Assembly: GCA_963971425.1 (NCBI GenBank)
Contig: OZ020520.1
Span: 6,738,553-6,802,552 of the forward strand
Direction of reading: 5' to 3'
Length of the DNA: 64,000 nucleotides
Origin: Bryoerythrophyllum caledonicum
Taxonomy: Eukaryota > Streptophyta > Bryopsida > Pottiales > Pottiaceae
Below, one piece after another: positions 45,231-58,761 of the stretch. How positions within the stretch are numbered: position 1 is the first letter of the stretch; each line of letters starts with the position of its first letter. The notes under the pieces are model-generated. The model was not told the DNA's origin. It did no database searches and saw only the letters and a program-made list of their open reading frames with translations. A program made the translations under genes and the position numbers.

Positions 45231-45774
45231 TGTTGCAGTTCATAGAGAAAGTATCCCTCCGGAATGCACCCAATCGTCACTAAGTGCTTTCCAAAGTAAC
45301 CGCTCCGATTTTGTTCCCACAGAGACCTAATGTTCTTTTTCCAATACTCTGGATTACTAAACTTTATCCCAGCAATCCGTTCATAAGTTAGCTAAACTCT
45401 TTACTTACGTAGGGTAGATCCGGATCCTTCTTGAGTCCGGATTATGTACAAAGATTTCCGGAAATTACTTTCCGGAAATTTGGAGGGTAGTTTTGGTTTG
45501 TCTTTGTCCCTCCTCAGAGTGTCGCTTGGAATTTTTAAGCAAGTGGCCGGAGTCCACTGACCCTGTTTTGTGTAAGTGGTTGGGTTTCCTACTGCCTTGC
45601 GACCTAAAGTGGCTAGGCACCCACTGTCCGGAACTTATAGAGACCGAACACCACTCTCCCTACTCTGCTAACTGGTGATTTGATTGCTGCTGCCGGACGT
45701 CGACTCTCACGACATCCAGAGGCCTTCCGGATGCGGTCACACAGAGACAACTCCGGACTACAACGACATTCTGG
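45231..45774 (-). mobile_element. Family A 5' LTR, downstream part
   Basis: Begins TGTTGCAG beside the PBS and is nearly identical to 26610-27012, and to the reverse complement of the end of the solo LTR at 23326-25248. It is interrupted at 45775 by the CACTA element and continues at 58762. Confidence 0.85.
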
Positions 45775-45799
45775 CACTACGACAGATTGCTACCTTTAT
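45775..45799 (+). repeat. CACTA left terminal inverted repeat
   Basis: 25 bp, exact reverse complement of 58734-58758. Confidence 0.97.
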
Positions 45800-46075
45800 G
45801 ACTGGGAAAATATGACTGGGGATGACAGGCGACTAGAGGCAGTCACATTTTTTTTGGTCGAAACTGTCGGTGGCAATCCAATTTGAGAATATGACTGGCA
45901 GTCATTTTCTGCAGTCATATTTGCCAGCTGTACCGTATAAAATGCATGGGAGGGTCGTATACCTTCGTAGGGAACAAATGGGAACGATCGTAGGGAACGT
46001 CTTGTCATATTTGACAGTCATATTTTCACAGCGGTCATATTTTGCAGTCATATTTTTTCTGTAGTCATATTTTTA
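45800..46075. repeat. CACTA left subterminal repeats
   Basis: Scattered copies of TATGACTG and AGTCATATT in both orientations. In En/Spm such motifs are binding sites for the element's TnpA-type protein. Confidence 0.8.
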
Positions 46076-46543
46076 TTTTTTTTGGGCAGCCCAATATTAT
46101 ATACACTGCCCTAGGCAGTTTACATGTATTTTGGCCCTCCCAATCACTGCATAGTATGAGGATTTAGTGTATTTAGTTAGTAAAAATTATTCATGTCCCA
46201 AATTGAGTAATTCTAAGGTGCCTTACCATTATTAGAATTGTCCATGACTATAATTTGAAAAGATGATGATTAATTTTTTGTTTAATTCGGCTAACTGGGG
46301 GGGGGTTACATTGGCATGGAATATGGAAAAGAGCGGTTGCTCAATTTATAATTTTGAGCATGCATGTCGTAATGGTTTTCAATTGGCTTGAAAATGGTGC
46401 ATATTGGTTACAGAGGTTTAAGTGCATGTTTATTATCTGCCCAAGCCGTGAGGTTGCTGATTAAATATGCATATGTGAATATATGTATACATAGATATGG
46501 CAACGACTGAAATGTATAGAACTGTCAATGATTGAACCGAGAC
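46076..46543. other. Non-coding left arm of CACTA element
   Basis: AT-rich; likely holds the 3' untranslated region of the transposase gene. It contains a run of ten G at about 46300. Confidence 0.4.
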
Positions 46544-47420
46544 TCAATCCTCCTCTGAGTCGCTGTACTCTAAATCATCTACCGATGTGTCATCCTCTCT
46601 GAGGCGTTCTAATGTTGTGGCGACCACCTCTGGGGCTACTTCCACCGCACCAACCAGAATAGGTGTCTGTGCTATCGAATCCGAATCTAGGCTCGTAGAT
46701 TTCAGTCCGGGAAAGTCACACGCTCTACCCAATGATATGCATTGGACTTCATCCGAGAAGTGGTGTTTGGAGAATGACCGAGCTCCTCTCAGTTCTTTGC
46801 GCATCACAACTTCCCATCCACGCTTCGCCAAGTCTGGTGCAAAAAAAAATTGTTCGATGTGGAGGGGAAAGGCAAATGACTGTGCAGAGTATGGGATCAA
46901 TCTCTGAAAGTTAACGGTGCTGAAACCGTAATCGTCGCGCTTCATGGTGGCGCCATCTCCTCTCATGTTTGCAACCACCCAATTGCAATATAGGACCACC
47001 ACCTCAAACTGTCCATAGTCCACTGATAGTATTTCCTCCACCCACCCCACATACTCCAACTGTGCAGCCCTAAGATTTGTATCCTTTGTACCCGCGCGAC
47101 AAAGTTGACCAAAGGTAGCGGCTACTCCAGAGTCTGTGGTTGTGAGTTGCGCCTCTGCACTCCGCACCCGTAGGTGGTTTCCAAATGCATACATGGACCG
47201 ATACGACTTGGCTTCGTCCGATGGAGGTACCATCAAGGCCAATACGTCGGTAGGGACCTGCTCGTCTCCATCTTGTACAGCTCGTAACACAGCCTTTGGA
47301 AACCAGACATGGAAATCTTCATCACACATCTCTGACGGGTAGGCTGTCCTACCCTTCCGCTTCTTGCGCCTGTACTCGTGTCGCTCCGCTTCACGACGTG
47401 CCATGTCATCTTCGTGTCGC
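46544..47420 (-). CDS. CACTA transposase exon 5, DUF4216 region
   Basis: The last exon starts after acceptor CTACAG (47421-47426 on the complement) and continues the DUF4218 exon in frame across a split Arg codon. It begins RHEDDMARREAERHEYRRKK and contains EVVVLYCNWVVANMRGD, DDYGFSTVNFQRL and AFPLHIEQFFFAPD, typical of DUF4216 in plant CACTA transposases. It ends acidic (SVDDLEYSDSEED) at a stop. No internal stop. Confidence 0.85.
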
Positions 47421-47734
47421 CTGTAGGATAGAAGAGTTATTTATGGTCCAGTGCACCTTCACAAAATTGTCTAAGAGTAGAAGGTAATATGTAGCTGACT
47501 GTGGTCGGTCTTGGCAACAACTACATCATTGGGTGCAGTCACAGCCAACAGTGAAGGCAAACAGTGATGTCACTAGAAGCAGACGTCAACATTTATGGGC
47601 AGTCATTGATATCACGAGGAGTCGTCGTAAACATCACTGAAGGTAGTCATGAATATCATCAACATCACTGGATATAGTTATAGTAGGTATAGTCGCAGTA
47701 ATATTCTACGTAAGCCATAGTGATGTTAACTCAC

Positions 47735-48633
47735 CTGCGCCAATCTTCCAATGGCGCCGCGTTATTCACCACGAACTCGTGAATCCATCCCCGAAGGTTA
47801 ACTGACAATCTGCGTGGACGCTCGTTGCCTTCAAGTATCTCGTCGTACATGGACGGGTCTTCTTTATCATCCCACACTCTTCGTGTAGTAGTCGTATACT
47901 CTTGCATATACTCGGTGCAAAATCCCAATGCTTGTACTACAGCATAGCCTTCAGCCATGCTGCCTTCTGGTTGACATCGATTTCGAACATAGCCTTTGAG
48001 TGTCTTCAAATACCTCTCTATAGGGTACATCCATCGCGTATGCACGGGTCCACAAATTTCAATTTCCTCTACAAGGTGTATAACCAAGTGACTCATAATG
48101 TCAAAGAACGACGGCGGGAACTCCTTCTCCAACATGCATAAAGCGATGGCCGCTTCGCATCTCATATCTTCTATTGCCTTGGGATCAATGGACTTAGCAC
48201 ATATCCGCCGAAATACCCGGCTCAACATTATTATTGCCGTACGAACTTCCTTGGCCATTGTAGTGCGCACACATAGTGGCAACACTTGCTGGAGAAGGAC
48301 ATGGTAGTCATGTGATTTCAGACCTTTGATACTCCCATCCATGCTAACACGCTTCTTTAGCTGCCCAACGTACTGAGATGGGGTTCGCAAGGAACGCACT
48401 TGGTTTACAAAGACCTGTCGCTCTTCTTTCGTAAGAACATACGATGAGCGAGGTAATATGACGCTGCCGGGTTTCTTACCTTGTACAGGCCATAGATGTT
48501 TGCGTATCCCCGCTTCCTTCATATCGAGGCGGGCTGCGAGGGTGTCCTTCTCTCCAAATATGGTCTTCATGATATTCTCAGCAATGTTTTTTTCACAATG
48601 CATGACATCCAACGTGTGTCGGATTAGAAGATC
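47735..48633 (-). CDS. CACTA transposase exon 4, DUF4218 region
   Basis: Acceptor TACAG then DLLIRHTLDVMHCEKNIAEN, SHDYHVLLQQVLPLCVR, FPPSFFDIMSHLVIHLVEEI and TRWMYPIERYLKTLKGYVRN, all hallmark DUF4218 segments. The donor GTGAGT follows DWR. Intact. The preceding exon ends LPYWK, so the join reads as in other plant CACTA transposases. Confidence 0.92.
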
Positions 48634-48852
48634 CTGTACAGTGACTCCGGTCAGTCACAAATTAGATTCCATGAAGTACAGAAATAACTATATTTAGTCA
48701 CATTCCACAGTATATGACTGCACATTGAGTCCTAAACATTAGTGCCAATGAATCTGATTATCACTATGCACAGTCATAATGTAGAGTCCACGCAACATAA
48801 CATCACTACATACTGACATGTCACACTACAACAGTGCGTTAGACACACGTAC

Positions 48853-50415
48853 TTTCCAATACGGAAGGTCAAAGAGAGATGTCCTTCTCTTTACTCCATG
48901 TTCATGTATAGGGTCTGGCATCTGTCCTCCTTCGTTTTCGCGGTTATTTCTTGTCCACTGTTGTCGCTCATTCGCGAAGTGCAATTGCTCTCGACCGCTC
49001 ATCCTTCGTGGTGGAGGTCTCATGTTGGGTTGGCCATCAAAATTGGCCCTTTGTCGTCTCCATTGGTGCGCCATTGGCAAATGCCGTCTATGCCCAAGGT
49101 AGACATTCTTCTTCAGTGCCTTTGAGCGCCGAGTTACTACATTGGGGCCACACACGGTACACGCCTTATGTCCTTTTGTGACTTGGCCAGAAATCAATCC
49201 ATATGCCGGGAAGTCGTTCACCGTCCACAATAACATGCCCCGGAGTTTGAATGTATTGTTGATAGAGTTTCTTTGTGATCCATCTACGCAATCGGTCCCT
49301 TTCCATAGCTCTTGTAGCTCTTCCATTAATGGTGCTAGGTACACATCCACATTTTTATCCGTCACGCTCTCTTTTCCGGGTATCAGTAACGTGAGCATCA
49401 TGAAGAAGTTTTTGGTCACTAGCCAAGGGGGAAGATTGTAGTTTAGCATGACCACGGGCCACGTTGAGTGGCTAAGGCTTTGGTTCCGAAACGGGTTAAC
49501 ACCATCTAGTGCCAAGCCTAGCCTAACATTACGTTCTTCATTTGCAAACTCAGGCCATCTATTATTCACGTGATTCCATGCCTTTGAGTCAGCGACAGAT
49601 CTCATAACCTTGTCATTGCTTTTTCCGCCTACGTGCCATTTCATGAGCTCTGCCAAACGTGTGCAACTGTACATTCTTCGCAAACGAGGGATCAATGGGA
49701 AGTGTCTCAATACTTTGACAGGTATTGTGGTGGAGTTGTCTACATACCGGGATTTGTAGCAAACAGGGCACGCCGTTGCATCCTCTAAATCTTTCCGAAA
49801 TAAACAGCACCCATCTCTACACGCATGTATAAAGTCGTAGGACAACCCCAATTTCATCAACGTACACTTTGCCTCGTAAAATGTTTTCGGAAGTGTGTTG
49901 CCCTTGGGCAATATTGTCTCCCGTAATAACTTCAACAACTCGTCCACAAATTTGTTTGGTACGCCAAATGTGGTGCAACAAACAAGTAGCATGAGCGTGG
50001 AGGTGAGACGGTTGGAAGAGCTCCCTACATAAAGTGGAGTCTTCGCATCGCGTAATAGGATGTCCACGGCTATGCCGCTAGGGTCGTTCATGTTCATGGT
50101 TGTCCCTCTTGATTCCATGGGGTTGTTGCGTTCCTCCGTCTCGTCATCGCTACCTTCGTTGTCACTCGGTACGAAGCCATCCTCCGGGCAGTGCGCAGCT
50201 TCAAGTACCACATCATCAACTCCGTCATCATGAGTTGGGATTGTCTCGCTCCCCCCTAAGTTGACATTGTCATACTTGTTGAAGCAATCTGCCACCATGC
50301 GCAAAACATCTACTTCTCCAACTTCTCCGCCGTCCAATGTATGATTAGACTCAGACTCGCTATCTTCACCATTGCGCTCTATATTTTGGACCAAATTCAG
50401 GGGGCTGTACTCATC
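48853..50415 (-). CDS. CACTA transposase exon 3, Tnp2 catalytic region
   Basis: Transposase_21 (Tnp2) core that cuts and joins element ends. After acceptor TTTGCAG an acidic N-terminal stretch is followed by CPVCYKSRY, LGLALDGVNPFRNQ, WPVVMLNYNLPPWL, LIPGKESVTDKNVDVYLAPL, LWTVNDFPAYGLISG and KACTVCGPNV. The Asp in ALDGVNPF and that in VNDFPAYG are candidate catalytic residues. The exon ends YWK at donor GTACGT. No internal stop. An alternative start exists at 50440 (MSCTWMNLQ), so this exon may also begin its own protein. Confidence 0.92.
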
Positions 50416-50661
50416 CTGCAAATTCATCCACGTGCATGACAAGTGTGTCCATGTGTTAAGTGTTGTTCACACAAAGAAGGTACTCATTGAAGACGTGCTG
50501 TGCAAAATATGACTGACAGTAATCACATTACAGGAGTGAATAGTGACTGTTTGTAGTCATCTTGAAAACAACTTGACTGATACTAGTCATATTACATAGA
50601 CATGCACCGATTGTAGTTCTGCCGTTCAGGCCTCAACTAGTCTTTCATTATATTTACTCAT

Positions 50662-51270
50662 TTACCACACAGTGCTCTGATGTAGGAAGTAATGCGCATA
50701 GAGTTCTTCTCCAGCCCTGATGTCCCTTGTTGCTATGGTAATCACATATCCCCATTCCGAAGTGTTCCACGGTTTAGGAAACATGCGAAACTCCCACACA
50801 ACATTTCCTATCTCACTACGCCCAATGGAACTATTAATGAATCCAGCGACATTCCCTTTCACTACATCTCCGTCAATGTACAAGTCCGACTCCGCACGCA
50901 TCAGGTACGACTTCATTCGAGGTTGTGCCTTGCTCAATATTTTGTATTCTGCCGAGGTGTATTGTGGTCCTACGAAAGGAAGCAGTTCCTCACCTTCTTT
51001 GGCGGGTTGCATTGCAAATAGACCCCAACCCATGAAGCCAAATTTGGACACCTTCACTTCCCAATCTCTTTTCCAATATGAAAATCGTGTTAGCTTTGGA
51101 ATGAGCCCGTCGCACCATTGCCCGTCATACACATCTGAACGCCACTTTTGCAAGCGACTGACTCTTGCGGATGTAGGTGTAGATATGGCGTGATCGGAGG
51201 ATTTTTTTTGACTTAAGAACGTTGTCAGTGATTTTAAACATGCTGATCTGACAATGGGTCTCCACCGATC
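50662..51270 (-). CDS. SET-domain exon inside the CACTA transposase gene
   Basis: The exon opens after acceptor TATGTAG with DRWRPIVRSACLKSLTTF and joins the upstream exon in phase 0. The SET fold is seen as GFMGWGLFAMQPAKEGEELL, VGPQYTSAEY, GDVVKGNVAGFINSSIG (in place of the usual N-H-S-C) and ITIATRDIRAGEELYAHYF. SET domains usually methylate histone lysines; here the Asn-His-Ser motif is altered, so activity is uncertain. The frame ends at TAA 50662-50664, where a GTAAAT donor-like sequence overlaps the stop. Splicing from there to exon 3 would not be in phase by my count, so a separate transposase-associated-SET protein is possible. Confidence 0.8.
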   Translation of the reverse strand, partial: DRWRPIVRSACLKSLTTFLSQKKSSDHAISTPTSARVSRLQKWRSDVYDGQWCDGLIPKLTRFSYWKRDWEVKVSKFGFMGWGLFAMQPAKEGEELLPFVGPQYTSAEYKILSKAQPRMKSYLMRAESDLYIDGDVVKGNVAGFINSSIGRSEIGNVVWEFRMFPKPWNTSEWGYVITIATRDIRAGEELYAHYFLHQSTVW

Positions 51271-51366
51271 CTACATAATTAATGAACACAAACTTTTAAA
51301 CCCTACAACAGTACATAGAACCACATCGCTTTAATTTAGAAGGACTGGTTGGTTGCAATCACTTAC

Positions 51367-51565
51367 CAAGATCGATGCTGTAAAAACGGGGTCCCTTTTT
51401 CTACTACGAAGATGCTTCCGAATTGCGGCTCGATCAAGAACTTTCCCTCTTGCACATTCAGTGCATGGACATGGGTATTTTGTTAATCGCAAGGTATCCA
51501 CTTGAATCTCTTCCTCTTGCCATAATTGTAGATGCTTTAAGCATTGGAGCTCCCCTTCTTCGATC
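51367..51565 (-). CDS. CACTA transposase-associated domain exon
   Basis: Acceptor CCATAG, then RIEEGELQCLKHLQLWQEEE, LRLTKYPCPCTECARGKVLD and AIRKHLRSRKRDPVF. The CPC-x2-C cluster with the HL motif is the plant transposase-associated domain normally found at the N-terminus of CACTA transposases. Donor GTAAGT at 51361-51366. Upstream exon or start not identified; a Met frame begins near 51630. Confidence 0.85.
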
Positions 51566-52723
51566 CTATGGAAAGAACCAAAACACACGTTCAGGGTGAC
51601 AAGGAGCTCTTGGAGGCAATGACAATACAATTCTTATACACATTACACGCCACTTATGATATTGAAATCAGCATACCTTTGTGCAACGGAAATATCACCG
51701 GAGAAAGTCATATAAGAGGAATCGCTCATATTTATTACAAGAGATAGTGATGCAAATGACGAGAGGGTGTTATATGACTTCCGAATGTCACATACATGAC
51801 TGGAAGTTGTCATAAAATTCTGAGAATCTATAATCAGGAATCAAACCATTCACCACCCAATCTAATCAAGTACCCACATACAATCTAACCCCTACTTAAC
51901 ATTAGAAAGCCACCGTACACTTATCCTACTCCACAACACAAACAAGCTCTGATTCCAAACTGCAAACCAGCTTATCAACACATGCAAGCCATGTGTAGTA
52001 TATGTGAGTTGTTAATGATTGAATAGAACAAAAATCTATACCATACATCATAATGGACTTATCTAAATTTGAGAATTAAGTACCTACTCTAAACCTTATC
52101 GTGCACCACAGGACAAGAAAGCAGACACAATTCTACATCCAAACTGCAAACTTCAAACTAGCTTATCAGGACATGCAAGCTATACGTAGTGTATGTGATT
52201 TGGTAGTGATTCAGATGAACAGGAATTTGACACCCACCAACATATTACATTAATGGTGCTTCTCACCACACCGGTCACCATTGAAGTTTTACTGAAAAAA
52301 CAACAACAAAGTTAAAAATCAATTGGTATTATAATCTAACACCCAATCACCGAGAGGCATACGCACTGCATGAGCGATAAGCCGGAGACGACACTGTGTC
52401 GTTTAAATTTTCTACACACAATCACAGGAAACCAATCCATACCAAATTCAAGGGGCTCTCCACCCCTGTCCCGGCCCGGAGGATGGAGTCACATGACTAT
52501 AGCCAGTCATACGTATGACTGAAGGCAGTCACACAGATACGAATGACCAAAGGTAGTAACACGTATAACTGGAGCCCGTAACCGAGACCAGGTCGGCGGG
52601 GATCGGTCAAAGGACGTTGACCAGGGCGACGTGGCCGACTAACAAACCCTACCGCGCACTGTAGCGACCATCCTCGACTGCCGTTAGTGCGCTTCTCACA
52701 GGCGGAGTGTGTGACCAAGCACG
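51566..52723. other. Bidirectional intergenic region of the CACTA element
   Basis: No supported gene. It contains diverged direct repeats near 51950-52020 and 52130-52210 (CAAACCAGCTTATCAACACA-like, then GCAAGC with TGTAGT). It would hold the promoters of both CACTA genes. Confidence 0.5.
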
Positions 52724-55080
52724 ATGGCCCCTGAGCAATCAGATTACGAGAAGCTGAGAAACAACACGATTGCCAAGAACAAGGAGGTGATGCGTGGTTT
52801 AGGCTTGCTTGTGGCTGCACCAACGACCTTCAAGCGACCGCAAGACAAGAGGTGAGTTGAAACCTCGTGCGCCTTGCTGCTTGGTCTTGAGTCCAGGCCG
52901 AAGTTAGGGTTTCACAGGGGCAAAGCATCGAGGCTCCGATGTCGGTTGTGAGGTCGCCCTTCCAGCGCTCAGGGGTGAGGATATGGCCGAATTCGGAGAA
53001 GACTCCTTCCTGGCCGTCGCCCTCCTAGCCGTCGCCCTCCTGGCCGTCGCCCTCCTGGCCGTTGCCCTCTTGGTCGCCCTCCTGGTCGCCCTCGTGGCCG
53101 TCCGTAGCCGAGGTCAACACCGGTGGTGTCGTCGCCCTCTTGGTTGCTCGGGGGTGTGGCCGTCGCCCTCCTACCCGTGATCAGGTCGCCCTCCTGGCCT
53201 TCAAGCTCAGAGCTGCTGCGGTGAAGCCTTTTTGGGGTGAGGTCGCCCTCATGGCCTTCGATTAGAGTTGTGCCATCATTGATAGTTTAGGGTTTGGTCC
53301 ACCGATAATCCACGAGGCCTCTATACTAGCTCAGCAACTGCTCATTCTTTGTCTCTCACTCACAAACTTCATACCCCCGAGCATGAGTCTCCTTGTTCTT
53401 GCTTTGTCAAGTTTTTCGTGGGTGGCGATCTGAACTTTTCGTTGTCAGATGTTATGGTCTTGAACGATTGCTTCAAATCCATGCATGTTAGTTTTGGAGT
53501 TTATTCTTTTGGGTTTAGGGTCTTCTTCGAATAATGTATGAGAAATTAATGAATTCCCAGTAATTTACATAAACCCCAAATATCATGAATGAAGTTGTAA
53601 TTCATATTGTGAGACCGTGGGGTCGTATGTGCAGAGATCGTGACTTTCTGTAGTCACATTCAGCTGCAGCAGTGACTTGGAGTAGTCATAAATTCTGTGG
53701 ATATGGCTAATTTAGTTGGAAAAGTGATAAGAGACATTGCTAATCTATCGGACCATGCACAAATTGGAGTTTTTCGAACAATTGCTAGTTTCCCTGCGAT
53801 TACCTTGCCGGTCTTGGAAATGACTTCGATTGAGATTGCGGATGTTGTTGAGAGCAGCCATAATGTGCCCTTCGAAGGGCCTTCCAGTGTTCAGCCATCG
53901 CGGACCCGATCAACGCAAAGGAGGCTACTACCACAGGGTGTTAGCGGCAAAGACGACGACGGTGAGGACGAACTCGTAGAAGAGCCGTTACAAACAAAAA
54001 AACGAAAGGCAAGAATCCAAACTACTTGTACTTTGCCTTAGTATATGGTTTGATGCAAGGCATGGTGAGTGCAAAATATGTTTCGGTCATGGTGAGTACA
54101 ACATAACTAGTTTCAGTCATGCTGAGTGTCGAATATGACTACCTGTAGTGATGTTGTTGTGATTATGACTACGTGAAGTCATAATTGAATAAACATAGCG
54201 GGTTTCAGTCATACTGTAGGCGCCCGTTAAATTCCATCTCAATCATTTCCTGTAGGGGGTACGTTGTTCTGGCGATAAGCCTACCTCCTGGAGAGTGCAA
54301 TCTCGTCCAAGGAAGAGCAACATGGCTTCTTCGACAATGCTGGGAAGTACAACCGATGGTGAAGATGAGACCCTTCTAAGGTCTGAAGGAGAAGAGGATG
54401 CCGAGGAAGAGCGGTACACTGAAGATGAAGAGGAGGAGGCACCACCGGAGCAATGCACGGAACTCCTTGATGAGATTGAATTACGTGAACTTGGGGTCTT
54501 GAGGCGGATGGCGCAAAAGGGTGCAGATCCGAATGAATTACGAAAGAAGGTACGGAATCTTGAAACATCTCCACACCGTCAGTCCAAGTTGAAGGATTTG
54601 AGGCGGAGTATGAAGAGATCCGGAGACAAGGAGTCCCAAATGTGGGTTAAAGTTGATAATCTAGGATGCCCGACGGGAGCGCATAGGCCTGATTGGCTAA
54701 CCAAACTTCGTGGCTATTCCCGCGACTTGGACTAGAGCGTGGACAACTTCAAATTGCATCCTCGAGTGCTGCTCATGGCAATCAAGGACAGGATGGCGGC
54801 ACAGTTTGAATACCGGAGTGGGCTGGAGGATGTTCCAGAGGACGTGTTCTTCCAAGAATTGCGTCAACAAATGCGCACAAAGAGGGCAAATATGAAGAGG
54901 CTTCTCGATAAGGGCGAGCCTCTGCCAGGGTACGTGAAAAAGGAGCATGCGGAGAACTTCAAGAAGTTGATAGCAAGGACAGACAAGATTGCAGAGGCAG
55001 AACGTATGAAGAACGTGAGACAAGTTGTCCAGAACGTGTCGCACTCCGGGAGGTCTGAAGGGGAAGTGAGATCTCGCCTT
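52724..55080 (+). CDS. CACTA companion protein, 5' exons (TnpA/Ptta-like)
   Basis: Exon 1 (52724-52851) encodes MAPEQSDYEKLRNNTIAKNK then EVMRGLGL, the start typical of Ptta/En/Spm-type plant transposon proteins, and ends at donor GTGAGT. A middle exon lies within about 53700-54010 (boundaries unsure). A further exon at 54256-55080 has an acidic block (SEGEEDAEEERYTEDEEEE), then VDNFKLHPRVLLMAIKDRMA and a Lys/Arg-rich helix, ending at donor GTAAGT. One TAG at 54733-54735 interrupts this exon. It likely binds subterminal motifs of the element. Confidence 0.65.
53000..53255. repeat. GTCGCCCTCCTGGCC 15-bp tandem repeat
   Basis: Tandem and dispersed copies of GTCGCCCTCCTGGCC inside the first intron of the CACTA plus-strand gene. 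The period of 15 gives a misleading VALLA-repeat frame. Confidence 0.85.
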
Positions 55081-55347
55081 GTAAGTCACGTTCACCAACT
55101 TCTGCTAAAATGTTTTTGATGGTATGACTGCTTGCTGACATTCACTTTACTACTGACAGTGAGATTTCCTACAGAGAATGACTGAAGGCAGTCATATTCT
55201 CCAGCCACATGCAACTAGATTTTGTGACGTTATAGAGTCATATTACCAATCTCAAGACAATTAGGTGACTGCAGATAGTGATATCACTGTACAATTATAA
55301 AACGCTTCTCTTCACTGTGATTCTGACCCGTATTGATAATTGCATAG

Positions 55348-56143
55348 ATCTTTATGGATGATCAGTTGCTTCTCTCACAGGCCGTACAGTTGGATCGGCC
55401 TCCAACGCAATTGGAAATCGAAGAAGAGCTCATGACACCCGGCAAATCAGGTCGCCCACAGTCGTCCACTTCAAGAGGCGGAGGGTCCAATCCAAGAGGC
55501 CTTGCAGCTTTAAGGAGCGAGGTGGAGGCACACATACAAGATGTTAAAGGCGAGTTAGAGGACATGAAAAGCAGCATGAAGGAGCTGCTACTCGAGTTCC
55601 GGAAGCATCGGCTGCCATCGACCGCACTTGAATCCTCAGAAATGGGCAATACGGGATTGGAGGAGGCCCATCCACAATCAGCAAAATTGCCGGTTGTTTC
55701 TATGGCAATCATGGATCCTGTGTGGGGCACAAATGAAACCGCAACAAACACGGATGAAGAGGTCCACATGACTCGTCATGAGGTAGCTGAAGGAGCAGCA
55801 GAGGTATGACTTCAACACCCAGGAACGTACTGAAAATAGTGAATCAAGCTAATAGATGGTTGGTCAATCAGTTAGGTTGTTTGTTGTACTCACTTCTCTT
55901 TGATGTCTGCTATTAGGAGGAAGGGGCTACTGTGAAGTCCGGTGACGCCGAGGGCGTTGTATGTTTGAATTCTCAGATTGAACCAGCCAAGGCTGCCAAA
56001 AACTCTGAGGAAGGTGCGGATCCGGAACCCCCTCAATGCCAAAGAAGGATGAAAAATCGCCGAAGAAGAGGAAGGGCGAGGCCGAGAAGCTCTTGGAGGA
56101 TCGCAAAGGTCGTACCACGTGCCGCGCGACCGCGAAGGACAAG
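55348..56143 (+). CDS. CACTA companion protein, middle exons
   Basis: Exon 55348-55803 (acceptor TGCATAG, donor GTATGA) encodes a coiled coil with EVEAHIQDVKGELEDMKSSM. Exon 55917-56143 (acceptor CTATTAG, donor GTACCC) is short and Lys/Arg/Glu-rich. Neither has a recognised domain; the coiled coil suggests oligomerisation. Confidence 0.55.
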
Positions 56144-56502
56144 GTACCCTTCCACTTCCAAATACATGAAATGTATGAGAGAGTAGATTAAATGTATGGA
56201 TTAGTCAACCCTGTGATTAGCATGAACTAGTGATAAACCACGTGAATGCTACAGGGATCAGTAATGTACCCAACGAATGTGACAGGGATCAGTAATATAC
56301 CGAGCGAATGTGACAAGACACAGTAATATAAGCAATGAAATGTCACAAGTATGAGTAACGTATCTCAAAAATGTGACACAATCCAGTGACAATTCCACTG
56401 TATATTACACGTATTAGTCATAAATGCACTACAACACTGTATCACAGAGTCTTGTTATATATGCATTCGTTTGTGGGAAACCATTGTTTGACTGTATGTA
56501 AG

Positions 56503-57697
56503 CGATGTGGTGCTCCAAGGATGATGAAGAGAGCCAGGAGGAGCCTGCCGCAAAGAAGAAGCGGGCAAACAAAGGAAGTAGTCCTGCTAAGAAGAAGAAG
56601 GCTAGAGGCGGGGGGAAATGTCCACCGGTAAGGATTTGTGATGATTTGCGTAGAAAGGTCATCGTTTTGAACGTTGTGGGGCTTCTATGTGATATCAGGC
56701 CACTACACGATAGGCAAGAGTGGGGTGCAGATCTACTGGTCCACTACGATCAAGACCACAAGGTCAAAATCAAGAAAAGGGCTGATTGTGGCCCTTTCTT
56801 GTCCATGTTACGTAGTCGATTTGACGTGGGGATATGGTCGCCTATTGAGCATAGTCTGCTCGAGATTGTAGCTAAGTTCTTGGTAAACTCCACATCGGTG
56901 AAGTGGAGTTTTTTGTGGGGAAAGGAAATTGGCGGTAGTAAGAGAAATCTACATGATTTCTTTAGCGCAGTCCCTATGTCATCAGCTATTAAAGCTCGTT
57001 GCCTTCAATTCGATTGCGATGCAACCACAACGAATGAGTCTCCTCCCTCAAATGTCCTCACTTGTCCACGATGGGACCCACTAGAGCCTAACGACGACTA
57101 CTTGAGCCGCCTAATAGAGCCATTTCAGGCCTTAGCCCGTAACCCATCGGACATGGAATATTGCGTGGAATATTTGGGCAAGAACATCCGCCTAGCTGCA
57201 ATAACACTTATCCCGGTAGGTCCATGACTGCTTCATATGCCATATAATGAAACCATGCAAGCTCTCTCTCCCTTTCTTCTCCATCCTATTGTTAGGTATT
57301 TGTTTTAGAAATTGTTAGTTGTATTTTCTAGTCATTAATATGGTGGACCTTTCAACTCTTGACACAGGAACGTGAAGCCGTGCAGCTGATAGGGGAGGTG
57401 GCATTTGCAACGTTGGCACCGCAATCGAAGGTGGCCGTCATGGATTTTGACGATAATAACGAGCCCACTGACAAAGTTGTGGCTCATGGCTCGATTGTGA
57501 GCCTTGCAGGAGGCACGATGCACGGCCGGATGATTGAGGAAGACAATGCGTCGGTAATGATTTCATCGATTGTCCTAGGTTCGAAAACGCTCTATTTGTT
57601 CGAGCCTAACAATGACGATGATCCACCAATGCAACGCTTGGGGGATGCACTCAACTCCATTACAAAATGGCCCGTAGCTGCATTGAAGGCAGCGTGA
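56503..57697 (+). CDS. CACTA companion protein, 3' exons with unknown domain
   Basis: Exon 56503-57215 and exon 57368-57697 (acceptor GACACAG) join in phase 0. After a basic stretch (KKKRANKGSSPAKKKKARGG, nuclear-localisation-like) comes a globular region: NVVGLLCDIRPLHDRQEWGA, LSMLRSRFDVGIWSPIEHSL, LGKNIRLAAITLIP, then AVQLIGEVAFATLAPQSKVA and SSIVLGSKTLYLFEPNNDDD. No family recognised. It may be the C-terminus of the companion gene or an extra cargo gene. No internal stop, which is notable in this window. Confidence 0.55.
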
Positions 57698-58733
57698 GCT
57701 ATAGAACGTAAGACCTCTCCAAGAACTAAATACAACCTATTGAGGCTTTTTTTGCACAAAGTTCTTGTTGATGGACCCCATTACGTTTCCCTACATTGCG
57801 CCATCATTGCCTGTGATGAAGAAGAATACAGGAGTGTAGTTAACAACTGTCTCTAATGCAACTATAACAGCACGCCATCATTTGTGATGCCAGAATCTCT
57901 GAATTCTCGCTCTTAGATTCTCAGTATATGACTCCACAAAGTCATACAGCTAAATTGATGTGATTGGAACCAGTTATCCATCTCTTGCACTTAAATATGA
58001 CTAGTGATCTGGAAAACATGACTAAAAGTAGTCACAACACTAGGAATAACGGACCGTCATATCGGCCCATATACGACTCCACGTAGTCATATTCCACGTA
58101 AGCAAAAATATCACTAGCAGTCGCATTTTACGTGGCTGATTTTATGACTGAAAGTATGACTTCACAGAGTTGTATTCCACGTCAGCACAAAATATGACTA
58201 GCAAACACATTTCACGTGCTGAACATTATGATTGAAAATATGACTCCACAGAGTCGTATTCCACGTCAGGACAAAATATGACTAGCAAACACATTTCACG
58301 TGCTCAACATTATGAGCGAAAATATGACTTCACAGAGTCATATTCCACGTCAGCCCAAAATATGACTGGCTGTCATATTCCACGTGGCGGTGCCACGTCA
58401 GCAAAATACGACTCCACGGAGTCATAATCCACGTCAGCAAAAAATATGACTAGCCAGAGTCACATGCCACGTCGGATTTTGGCCTCAGCTGCCCGGGCAG
58501 GTCAAGAAAAGTCTTGGTCAATGGGACCGGTCAAATTGGGGGCGGAAATGCTGACGTGGCACGTACATTCGGGCTGAGTATACGTTTCAAGGCGTATTTA
58601 TTCAAATGACTGGCTGTCCGAAGCGACTCGTCGGTAACTACTAGACCCTGTCACCGCGCGCGTCATATTCTGAAAAACCACTGTAGTCATATTCCTGTGA
58701 ATTTATGACTCTGCGCAGTCATAAACGCCTGCA
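57698..58733. repeat. CACTA right subterminal repeats
   Basis: From about 57920 a dense set of AATATGACT and AGTCATATTCCACGTCAGCA units in both orientations, spaced 20-60 bases apart. It is richer than the left side. Typical CACTA subterminal structure. Confidence 0.85.
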
Positions 58734-58758
58734 ATAAAGGTAGCAATCTGTCGTAGTG
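58734..58758 (-). repeat. CACTA right terminal inverted repeat
   Basis: 25 bp, exact reverse complement of 45775-45799. Confidence 0.97.
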
Positions 58759-58761
58759 TGG

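What the first reader, a model, noticed from the sequence alone, without database searches (positions are those of the whole stretch)
50662..51565. SET domain spliced into a CACTA transposase gene
Exon 51367-51565 (transposase-associated domain) joins exon 51270-50662 (SET domain) in phase 0 across a GTAAGT...TAG intron, and Tnp2, DUF4218 and DUF4216 exons follow on the same strand. A DNA transposon with a histone-methyltransferase-like domain could modify chromatin at its own copies. SETMAR in primates is a known SET-transposase fusion, though with a mariner transposase. The Asn-His-Ser-Cys motif is altered to FINSSIG, so activity is unsure.
Basis: partly seen in the sequence, partly recalled or inferred. 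Interest (0 to 1): 0.82.

Follow-up and report, generated by a model that had tools for sequence, protein, structure and literature searches.

The report
Jumping gene carrying histone-methyltransferase-like exon
A plant-type DNA transposon carries, between two exons of its own transposase gene, a conserved extra exon that should make a second protein joining the transposase's DNA-binding-like tip to a histone-methyltransferase-like domain, which could let the transposon alter chromatin at its own copies.

Summary
The SET exon is real and lies in a complete CACTA element (window 45775-58758; 25-bp perfect inverted repeats, TGG target duplication). It is not a SET-transposase fusion: the SET exon ends in a stop whose letters all 23 family copies keep. 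The TAD-like exon can join SET (268-aa product) or, skipping SET, Tnp2-DUF4218-DUF4216 (1178 aa), both in phase 0. TAD-SET is open in 20 of 23 copies. TAD-SET-Tnp2 order recurs in 28 of the 30 loci read, including families with SET only 53-79% identical. SET is under purifying selection (dN/dS 0.14); the Asn and Tyr of the active site are kept and FINSS is the family norm. Six related CACTA loci have TAD and Tnp2 without SET. A palindrome, TGACT-N6-AGTCA, occurs 14 times in the element and nowhere else in the window. Best reading: an alternative terminal exon making an element-targeted methyltransferase, perhaps anti-silencing. Splicing, DNA binding and enzyme activity are untested.

The parts
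45775..58758 (-). Complete CACTA (En/Spm-type) element, 12,984 bp; transposase gene on the minus strand
   Evidence: Homology to two other copies stops at 45775; 25-bp perfect TIRs at both ends; 3-bp TSD. Same ends and TSDs TCT and TCA in the two other copies
45775..45799 (+). Left terminal inverted repeat CACTACGACAGATTGCTACCTTTAT
58734..58758 (-). Right terminal inverted repeat, identical over 25 bp
45772..45774 (.). Target site duplication TGG (left)
58759..58761 (.). Target site duplication TGG (right)
51367..51564 (-). First coding exon: transposase-associated-domain-like (TAD); start codon absent in the window copy, present in 22 of 23 copies
51271..51366 (-). 96-bp intron between TAD and SET exons (GTAAGT...TAG), donor and acceptor kept in all 23 copies
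50662..51270 (-). SET exon, 202 codons plus stop TAA (alternative terminal exon)
50416..51366 (-). 951-bp intron used if SET is skipped (GTAAGT...CAG); TAD to Tnp2 in phase 0
   Evidence: inferred splice; acceptor kept in all 23 copies
48853..50415 (-). Transposase_21 (Tnp2) exon
47735..48633 (-). DUF4218 exon
46544..47420 (-). DUF4216 exon, ends in TGA
48642..52531 (.). Palindromes TGACT-N6-AGTCA in introns and upstream of TAD: starts 48642, 50544, 50574, 52494, 52516
53641..58721 (.). Palindromes TGACT-N6-AGTCA in the 5' half and subterminal region: starts 53641, 53673, 54166, 55179, 57929, 58019, 58325, 58447, 58706
53703..57696 (+). Second, divergent multi-exon gene of the element (exon limits approximate); exon 56502-57224 is NIF/FCP1-phosphatase-like
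   Evidence: open frames; Pfam NIF 20.2 bits for the window exon (cut-off 21.8), 29.5 for relative P0108, 19.3 for P0106

Best explanation
An autonomous-type CACTA transposon carries a SET exon inside the phase-0 intron between the TAD and Tnp2 exons of its transposase gene. SHOWN from sequence: complete element, conserved splice sites, conserved stop after SET, purifying selection, same layout in three families, related loci without SET. INFERRED: the primary transcript is spliced in two ways, TAD to SET (stop) giving a 268-aa TAD-SET protein, or TAD to Tnp2 giving the 1178-aa transposase. The shared TAD, possibly with the element's second protein, directs TAD-SET to the TGACT-N6-AGTCA palindromes in the element's noncoding DNA. 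SET then methylates histones (or another local protein) there, most likely to keep the element's promoter and ends in open chromatin against host silencing. Confidence is about 0.85 for the anatomy, 0.75 for two alternative products, 0.45 for self-targeted methylation, and 0.3 for the anti-silencing direction.
For: Ends, TIRs and TSDs in 3 of 3 copies examined. SET stop letters, TAD donor, SET acceptor and Tnp2 acceptor in all 23 copies. TAD-SET frame open in 20 of 23 copies, 19 with ATG; one copy (C14) has TAD-SET and, checked in pieces, TAD-Tnp2 open. Same order in 28 of 30 loci, in families with 79% and 54% SET identity, with phase-0 junctions. dN/dS of SET 0.137 between window and L035, against 0.113 for DUF4218, 0.205 for DUF4216, 0.098 for a Tnp2 slice. 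SET-less loci: TAD upstream of Tnp2 in 6 of 6 read; in 3 a short interval separates them, in 3 one open frame runs from TAD into the Tnp2 match; no SET by profile at E <= 1. A seventh (L064) keeps only a piece like the start of the SET exon between TAD and Tnp2, pointing to loss. In Chenopodium CACTA elements TAD, Transposase_21, DUF4218 and DUF4216 share one ORF (PMC8978399, passages). Palindrome: 14 exact in the element, all spacing 6; 0 in the other 51 kb; Markov mean 0.085 for spacings 4-9; 9 in L035, all spacing 6. Profile matches in PDB begin with SET1/MLL and ASH1L enzymes.
Against: No transcript was available; splicing is inferred. Many database relatives of the SET exon begin with Met near the start of the exon (e.g. 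P0001, P0002, P0010, P0032), so some lineages may use a separate start instead of TAD. Of the four family-2 loci compared, L026 has a stop just after the SET acceptor and L030 lacks TAD; L028 and L029 are open. L035 keeps an open SET but its TAD and Tnp2 are each split over two frames. The C4 copy has a stop in its DUF4218 exon. TAD scores are below Pfam's cut-off, and DNA binding is not shown. SET lacks pre-SET and post-SET Cys clusters; the Phe/Tyr switch position (recalled) is Ala/Thr. The direction is weakly founded: EZH2, which lays the repressive H3K27 mark, follows in the profile list ahead of SETD2 and leads the structural list, tied with SET8 and MLL. In L036 the palindrome spacing is not fixed: 3 at 6, 2 at 7, 1 at 8, 1 at 11; L028 has 2 at 7 and none at 6. 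The tree needs two changes for SET, so one gain with losses is inferred, not proven.
Confidence: 0.6

Rival explanations
1. The SET exon is fused in frame into the transposase, giving one SET-transposase polypeptide.
For: SET and Tnp2 exons lie in order on the same strand with phase-0 acceptors.
Against: The SET exon ends in TAA, its letters kept in all 23 copies; SET also ends in a stop before Tnp2 in L035 and L036.
Confidence: 0.04
2. SET is a separate small gene with its own start inside the exon, nested in the transposase intron and not joined to TAD.
For: Many database relatives have a Met near the exon start; L026 has a stop between the SET acceptor and the SET core.
Against: In the window's SET exon the first in-frame Met is residue 80, inside the SET core; TAD-SET runs through open in 20 of 23 window-family copies and in L028 and L029 of family 2.
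Confidence: 0.17
3. SET is a neutral captured host gene fragment (Pack-TYPE passenger).
For: CACTA elements are known to capture host fragments (PMC13317346, passages); SET+ families also have SET- relatives.
Against: dN/dS 0.137 at dS about 1 between window and L035, with conserved splice sites, stop and place in three families.
Confidence: 0.04
4. The SET protein is real but represses: it lays silencing marks on the element to limit copy number or transposase level, or splicing to SET takes transcripts away from transposase.
For: Alternative use of one TAD exon would make TAD-SET and transposase compete; EZH2, an H3K27 enzyme, is among the profile matches and leads the structural list.
Against: About 23 near-identical dispersed copies suggest a recent burst; the first profile matches are SET1/MLL and ASH1L, but weak.
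Confidence: 0.25
5. The SET is catalytically dead and only binds histones or partners.
For: His of the usual NHS motif is Ser, and the Phe/Tyr switch position (recalled) is Ala/Thr.
Against: G81/G83 kept in 43 and 46 of 46, the Asn in 45 of 46 and the Tyr in 42 of 43 ungapped proteins.
Confidence: 0.2

Closest known systems
CACTA/En-Spm elements of flowering plants (TAD-Transposase_21-DUF4218-DUF4216 ORF; e.g. Chenopodium Jozin, PMC8978399, passages)
   Same: CACTA ends, 3-bp TSD, same four transposase domains in the same order, subterminal repeats, a second ORF
   Different: A SET exon with its own stop between TAD and Tnp2; a TGACT-N6-AGTCA palindrome also in introns
SET-carrying transposons of oomycetes: HarbingerS and MuDR (stated in PMC12730594, citing Repbase Reports 2014, not seen), proto-Helentron of Phytophthora infestans (PMC4067079, passages)
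   Same: A DNA transposon carries a SET gene
   Different: Other superfamilies; in the passages read the Helentron SET is a separate ORF, not an exon sharing the transposase's N-terminal domain
SETMAR (primate host gene; PMC8616336, passages)
   Same: SET combined with a transposon-derived DNA-binding part
   Different: One host fusion gene with a mariner transposase, not a mobile element; SET and transposase in one protein
VANC proteins of Arabidopsis VANDAL elements (PMC10398659, abstract and introduction)
   Same: Works-like candidate: TE-encoded protein acting on short motifs repeated in the element's noncoding DNA
   Different: VANDAL is another superfamily (MuDR, per PMC12730594); binding is shown there, inferred here; no SET is mentioned for VANC in the text read
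TET/JBP-carrying fungal transposons including EnSpm (PMC12730594, passages)
   Same: Transposons including EnSpm that captured a chromatin-modifying enzyme, proposed to escape silencing
   Different: A DNA methylcytosine dioxygenase, not a histone-methyltransferase-like domain

Membership tests
CACTA/En-Spm transposon | CACTA terminal inverted repeats | tested here: met
   25-bp perfect TIR starting CACTA at both ends; also in two other copies
CACTA/En-Spm transposon | 3-bp target site duplication | tested here: met
   TGG, TCT, TCA in 3 of 3 copies examined
CACTA/En-Spm transposon | Tnp2 transposase with DUF4218 and DUF4216 | tested here: met
   Transposase_21 244.8 bits, DUF4218 128 bits; DUF4216 27.9, under its 30.6 cut-off
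CACTA/En-Spm transposon | TAD at the N-terminus | tested here: inconclusive
   17.5, 24.1 and 22.0 bits vs cut-off 27.7 in three families; position as expected
CACTA/En-Spm transposon | Transposition activity | not testable with these tools
   Only near-identical dispersed copies; three of them with different TSDs
SET-domain lysine methyltransferase | SET fold | tested here: met
SET-domain lysine methyltransferase | GxG, cofactor-binding Asn and catalytic Tyr | tested here: met
   G81 43 of 46, G83 46 of 46, N146 45 of 46, Y194 42 of 43; their roles are recalled
SET-domain lysine methyltransferase | canonical NHS(C) motif | tested here: not met
   NSS in the window and in nearly all relatives
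SET-domain lysine methyltransferase | methyltransferase activity and substrate | not testable with these tools
   needs an assay
SETMAR-like fusion protein | SET and transposase catalytic domain in one polypeptide | tested here: not met
   stop after SET, letters kept in 24 of 24 rows
Pack-TYPE passenger | captured fragment without selection on its protein | tested here: not met
   dN/dS 0.137

The most novel reading that the evidence does not exclude
A DNA transposon makes, by alternative splicing from one TAD exon, both its transposase and a sequence-targeted histone methyltransferase that acts on a palindrome spread through its own noncoding DNA: a self-encoded, self-addressed chromatin writer. 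The genome also holds another dispersed repeat type with its own Pre-SET+SET gene, so chromatin writers may have been recruited by mobile elements more than once here.
Probability: 0.4. Interest if true: 0.88.

Novelty: new variant of a known kind. Interest (0 to 1): 0.72.

Why it matters
SET genes are known in a few oomycete transposons. In the listings of searches I saw no paper on a SET in a CACTA element or on an alternative exon sharing the transposase's N-terminal domain (four of these listings were partial, 15-20 papers each, and Repbase Reports are not in that library). If true, this is a compact, testable system for how mobile elements write chromatin at their own copies: SET+ and SET- relatives in one genome, about 20 copies with an open TAD-SET frame, and a candidate target motif.

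Tried and rejected
SET-transposase fusion: rejected, conserved stop. Passenger fragment: rejected, dN/dS. Relatives elsewhere: a profile scan of viral contigs found none and a scan of bacterial and archaeal genomes none. In one search the Tnp2 rows with L36 used a wrong slice and the TAD rows with L35 cross a frame change; neither is used. Two SET matches in C673 and C356 (43% over 70 residues) are Cys-rich (AWS-like, by eye) SET genes on small contigs, without the CACTA layout in the 4 kb read. The number of all element copies by terminal repeat was never obtained. The origin of the SET exon among host SET genes was not worked out; no tree of host SET genes was built. Organism not identified: CCCTAAA telomere repeats at 3 of 5 contig ends read suggest the green lineage.

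Limits of counts: the SET matches (46) and Tnp2 matches (79 scored of 490 candidates) are lower bounds by the tool's own statement. In one search I entered 43 of the 46 SET matches, leaving out three short fragments of listed copies; 35 of 79 Tnp2 matches have a SET match within 3.5 kb upstream (one copy, on C15, counts twice). Of the 44 without, I read the upstream DNA of 7. In the six, weak BLAST hits of SET relatives (E 0.001-0.007) lie outside the TAD-Tnp2 interval and were taken as chance. In the tree, six rows whose SET state had not been read were treated as outside the SET group. Alignment A1 holds the window exon and 47 of the 53 proteins.

Full report
What was claimed.

The element. 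Comparing the window with two other genomic copies (L031-L034) shows the shared DNA stopping at 45775, with the matching inverted end at 58758. The ends are 25-bp perfect inverted repeats beginning CACTA, flanked by TGG on both sides. The two other copies have the same ends with TSDs TCT and TCA. So this is a complete 12,984-bp CACTA element. Its family in the 437-Mb assembly has about 23 members, 98.9-99.4% identical to the window over the 3.5-3.6 kb compared, shorter in L009 and L019.

The gene. On the minus strand: TAD-like exon 51564-51367, SET exon 51270-50662 with stop TAA, then Tnp2 50415-48853, DUF4218 48633-47735, DUF4216 47420-46544. Spliced in silico, TAD+SET gives 268 aa and TAD+Tnp2+DUF4218+DUF4216 gives 1178 aa, each with only a terminal stop. 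The TAD donor, the SET acceptor, the SET stop letters and the Tnp2 acceptor are kept in 24 of 24 aligned rows (23 copies, the window copy twice). The ATG that opens the TAD exon is present in 22 of 23 copies and absent only in the window copy. TAD-SET is open in 20 of 23 copies (19 with ATG); L011, L022 and L023 are broken. The copy on C14 has TAD-SET open and, checked in pieces, TAD-Tnp2 open; the copy on C4 has TAD-SET open but a stop in its DUF4218 exon.

Other SET+ families. Of the 30 SET loci fetched (best 30 of 46 matches), 28 have TAD before and Tnp2 after SET; L027 lacks Tnp2 in the DNA held, L030 lacks TAD. Two more distant families, with SET 79% and 54% identical to the window's, show the same order, a phase-0 TAD donor, a TAG acceptor and a stop after SET. 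The copies are not all healthy: in L035 TAD and Tnp2 are each split over two frames while SET is open; in family 2, L028 and L029 are open across the junction, L026 (same copy as L036) has a stop right after the acceptor. SET evolves under purifying selection between window and L035: dS about 1.0, dN 0.137, ratio 0.137; DUF4218 gives 0.113, DUF4216 0.205, a Tnp2 slice 0.098.

SET-less relatives. Of 79 scored Tnp2 matches (490 candidates), 35 have a SET match within 3.5 kb upstream and 44 do not. I read the upstream DNA of seven of those 44. TAD is there in 7 of 7. In L044-L046 about 70 bp separate the end of TAD from the Tnp2 open frame; in L047-L049 one open frame runs from TAD into the Tnp2 match; none of these six gives a SET profile hit at E <= 1. 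L064 has only a piece resembling the start of the SET exon region between TAD and Tnp2 (BLAST E 6e-15 and 0.002). In a Tnp2 tree of 17 rows the SET+ families need two changes of state, and well-supported branches force both. With the remnant and the identical position, one gain followed by losses is the simpler reading, but two gains are not excluded. In Chenopodium CACTA elements, TAD, Transposase_21, DUF4218 and DUF4216 share one ORF (PMC8978399, passages seen), so TAD-Tnp2 is the usual product and SET the addition.

The palindrome. TGACT-N6-AGTCA occurs 14 times in the element and not in the other 51 kb of the window; of spacings 0-12 only one other hit (spacing 3) occurs in the element. 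A first-order Markov model gives a mean of 0.085 and at most 2 for spacings 4-9 (200 simulations). With one mismatch there are 28 at spacing 6 against 0 outside. Of 84 half-sites 72 lie in the 5.9 kb taken as noncoding and 12 in the 7.1 kb taken as coding (exon limits of the plus-strand gene approximate). L035 has 9 exact, all N6; L036 has 3 at N6, 2 at N7, 1 at N8, 1 at N11; L028 has 2 at N7 only. This is what the sites of a dimeric element-encoded DNA-binding protein would look like. Short motifs repeated in noncoding DNA are also the targets of VANC anti-silencing proteins (PMC10398659, abstract and introduction read). Which protein binds here is not known.

Mechanism. Shown: anatomy, conservation, selection. 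Inferred: two spliced products from one TAD exon; TAD-SET addressed to the palindromes; histone methylation there; anti-silencing as the more likely direction. The direction is the weakest step: it rests on a weak resemblance to activating-mark enzymes, offset by EZH2 among the matches, and on the apparent recent burst of copies.

Comparison. SET genes are known in HarbingerS and MuDR elements of oomycetes (stated in PMC12730594, passages) and in a Phytophthora proto-Helentron (PMC4067079, passages). SETMAR is a host fusion gene (PMC8616336, passages). I saw no CACTA with SET in the listings of searches. I therefore file this as a CACTA element and a new variant of the known kind 'transposon with a captured chromatin enzyme'.

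Noticed in passing
window 53703-57696 (+): The element's second gene, opposite strand, has an exon (56502-57224) related to NIF/FCP1-type phosphatases, but where such enzymes have the catalytic Asp motif (recalled) relatives read NVV at 90% or more, so it may be a pseudo-phosphatase fold. The window copy has an in-frame stop at 54733-54735 that the C4 copy lacks.
   Followed up: partly
L067, L068, L069, L070 (own genome): Another dispersed repeat type seems to carry its own SET gene: in L067 Pre-SET and SET (46.6 and 58.0 bits); RING-like frames upstream in L067 and L069; beside it on the other strand, in L067, L069 and L070, a gene without Pfam match. The genome has at least 149 SET matches; dozens share frame patterns with these four loci.
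   Followed up: partly
own genome C1:50492-57049: Four SET copies of the second CACTA family in tandem with a 2,031-base period, about 50 kb from a contig end with telomere repeats.
   Followed up: no
L064 (own genome C529:9000-12900): A CACTA copy with only a piece resembling the start of the SET exon between TAD and Tnp2.
   Followed up: yes
own genome C673:21617 and C356:6322: Two near-identical Cys-rich SET genes on small contigs, unlike the CACTA SET; possibly contaminant sequence.
   Followed up: partly
window 52951-53259: GC-rich repeat of about 15 bp (GTCGCCCTCCTGGCC) inside the element, apparently different in length between copies.
   Followed up: no
L027 (own genome C8:17463745-17467083): A derivative with TAD and the first half of SET followed by pieces matching 45794-46167 and 54643-55072 of the element, without Tnp2 in the DNA held.
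   Followed up: no
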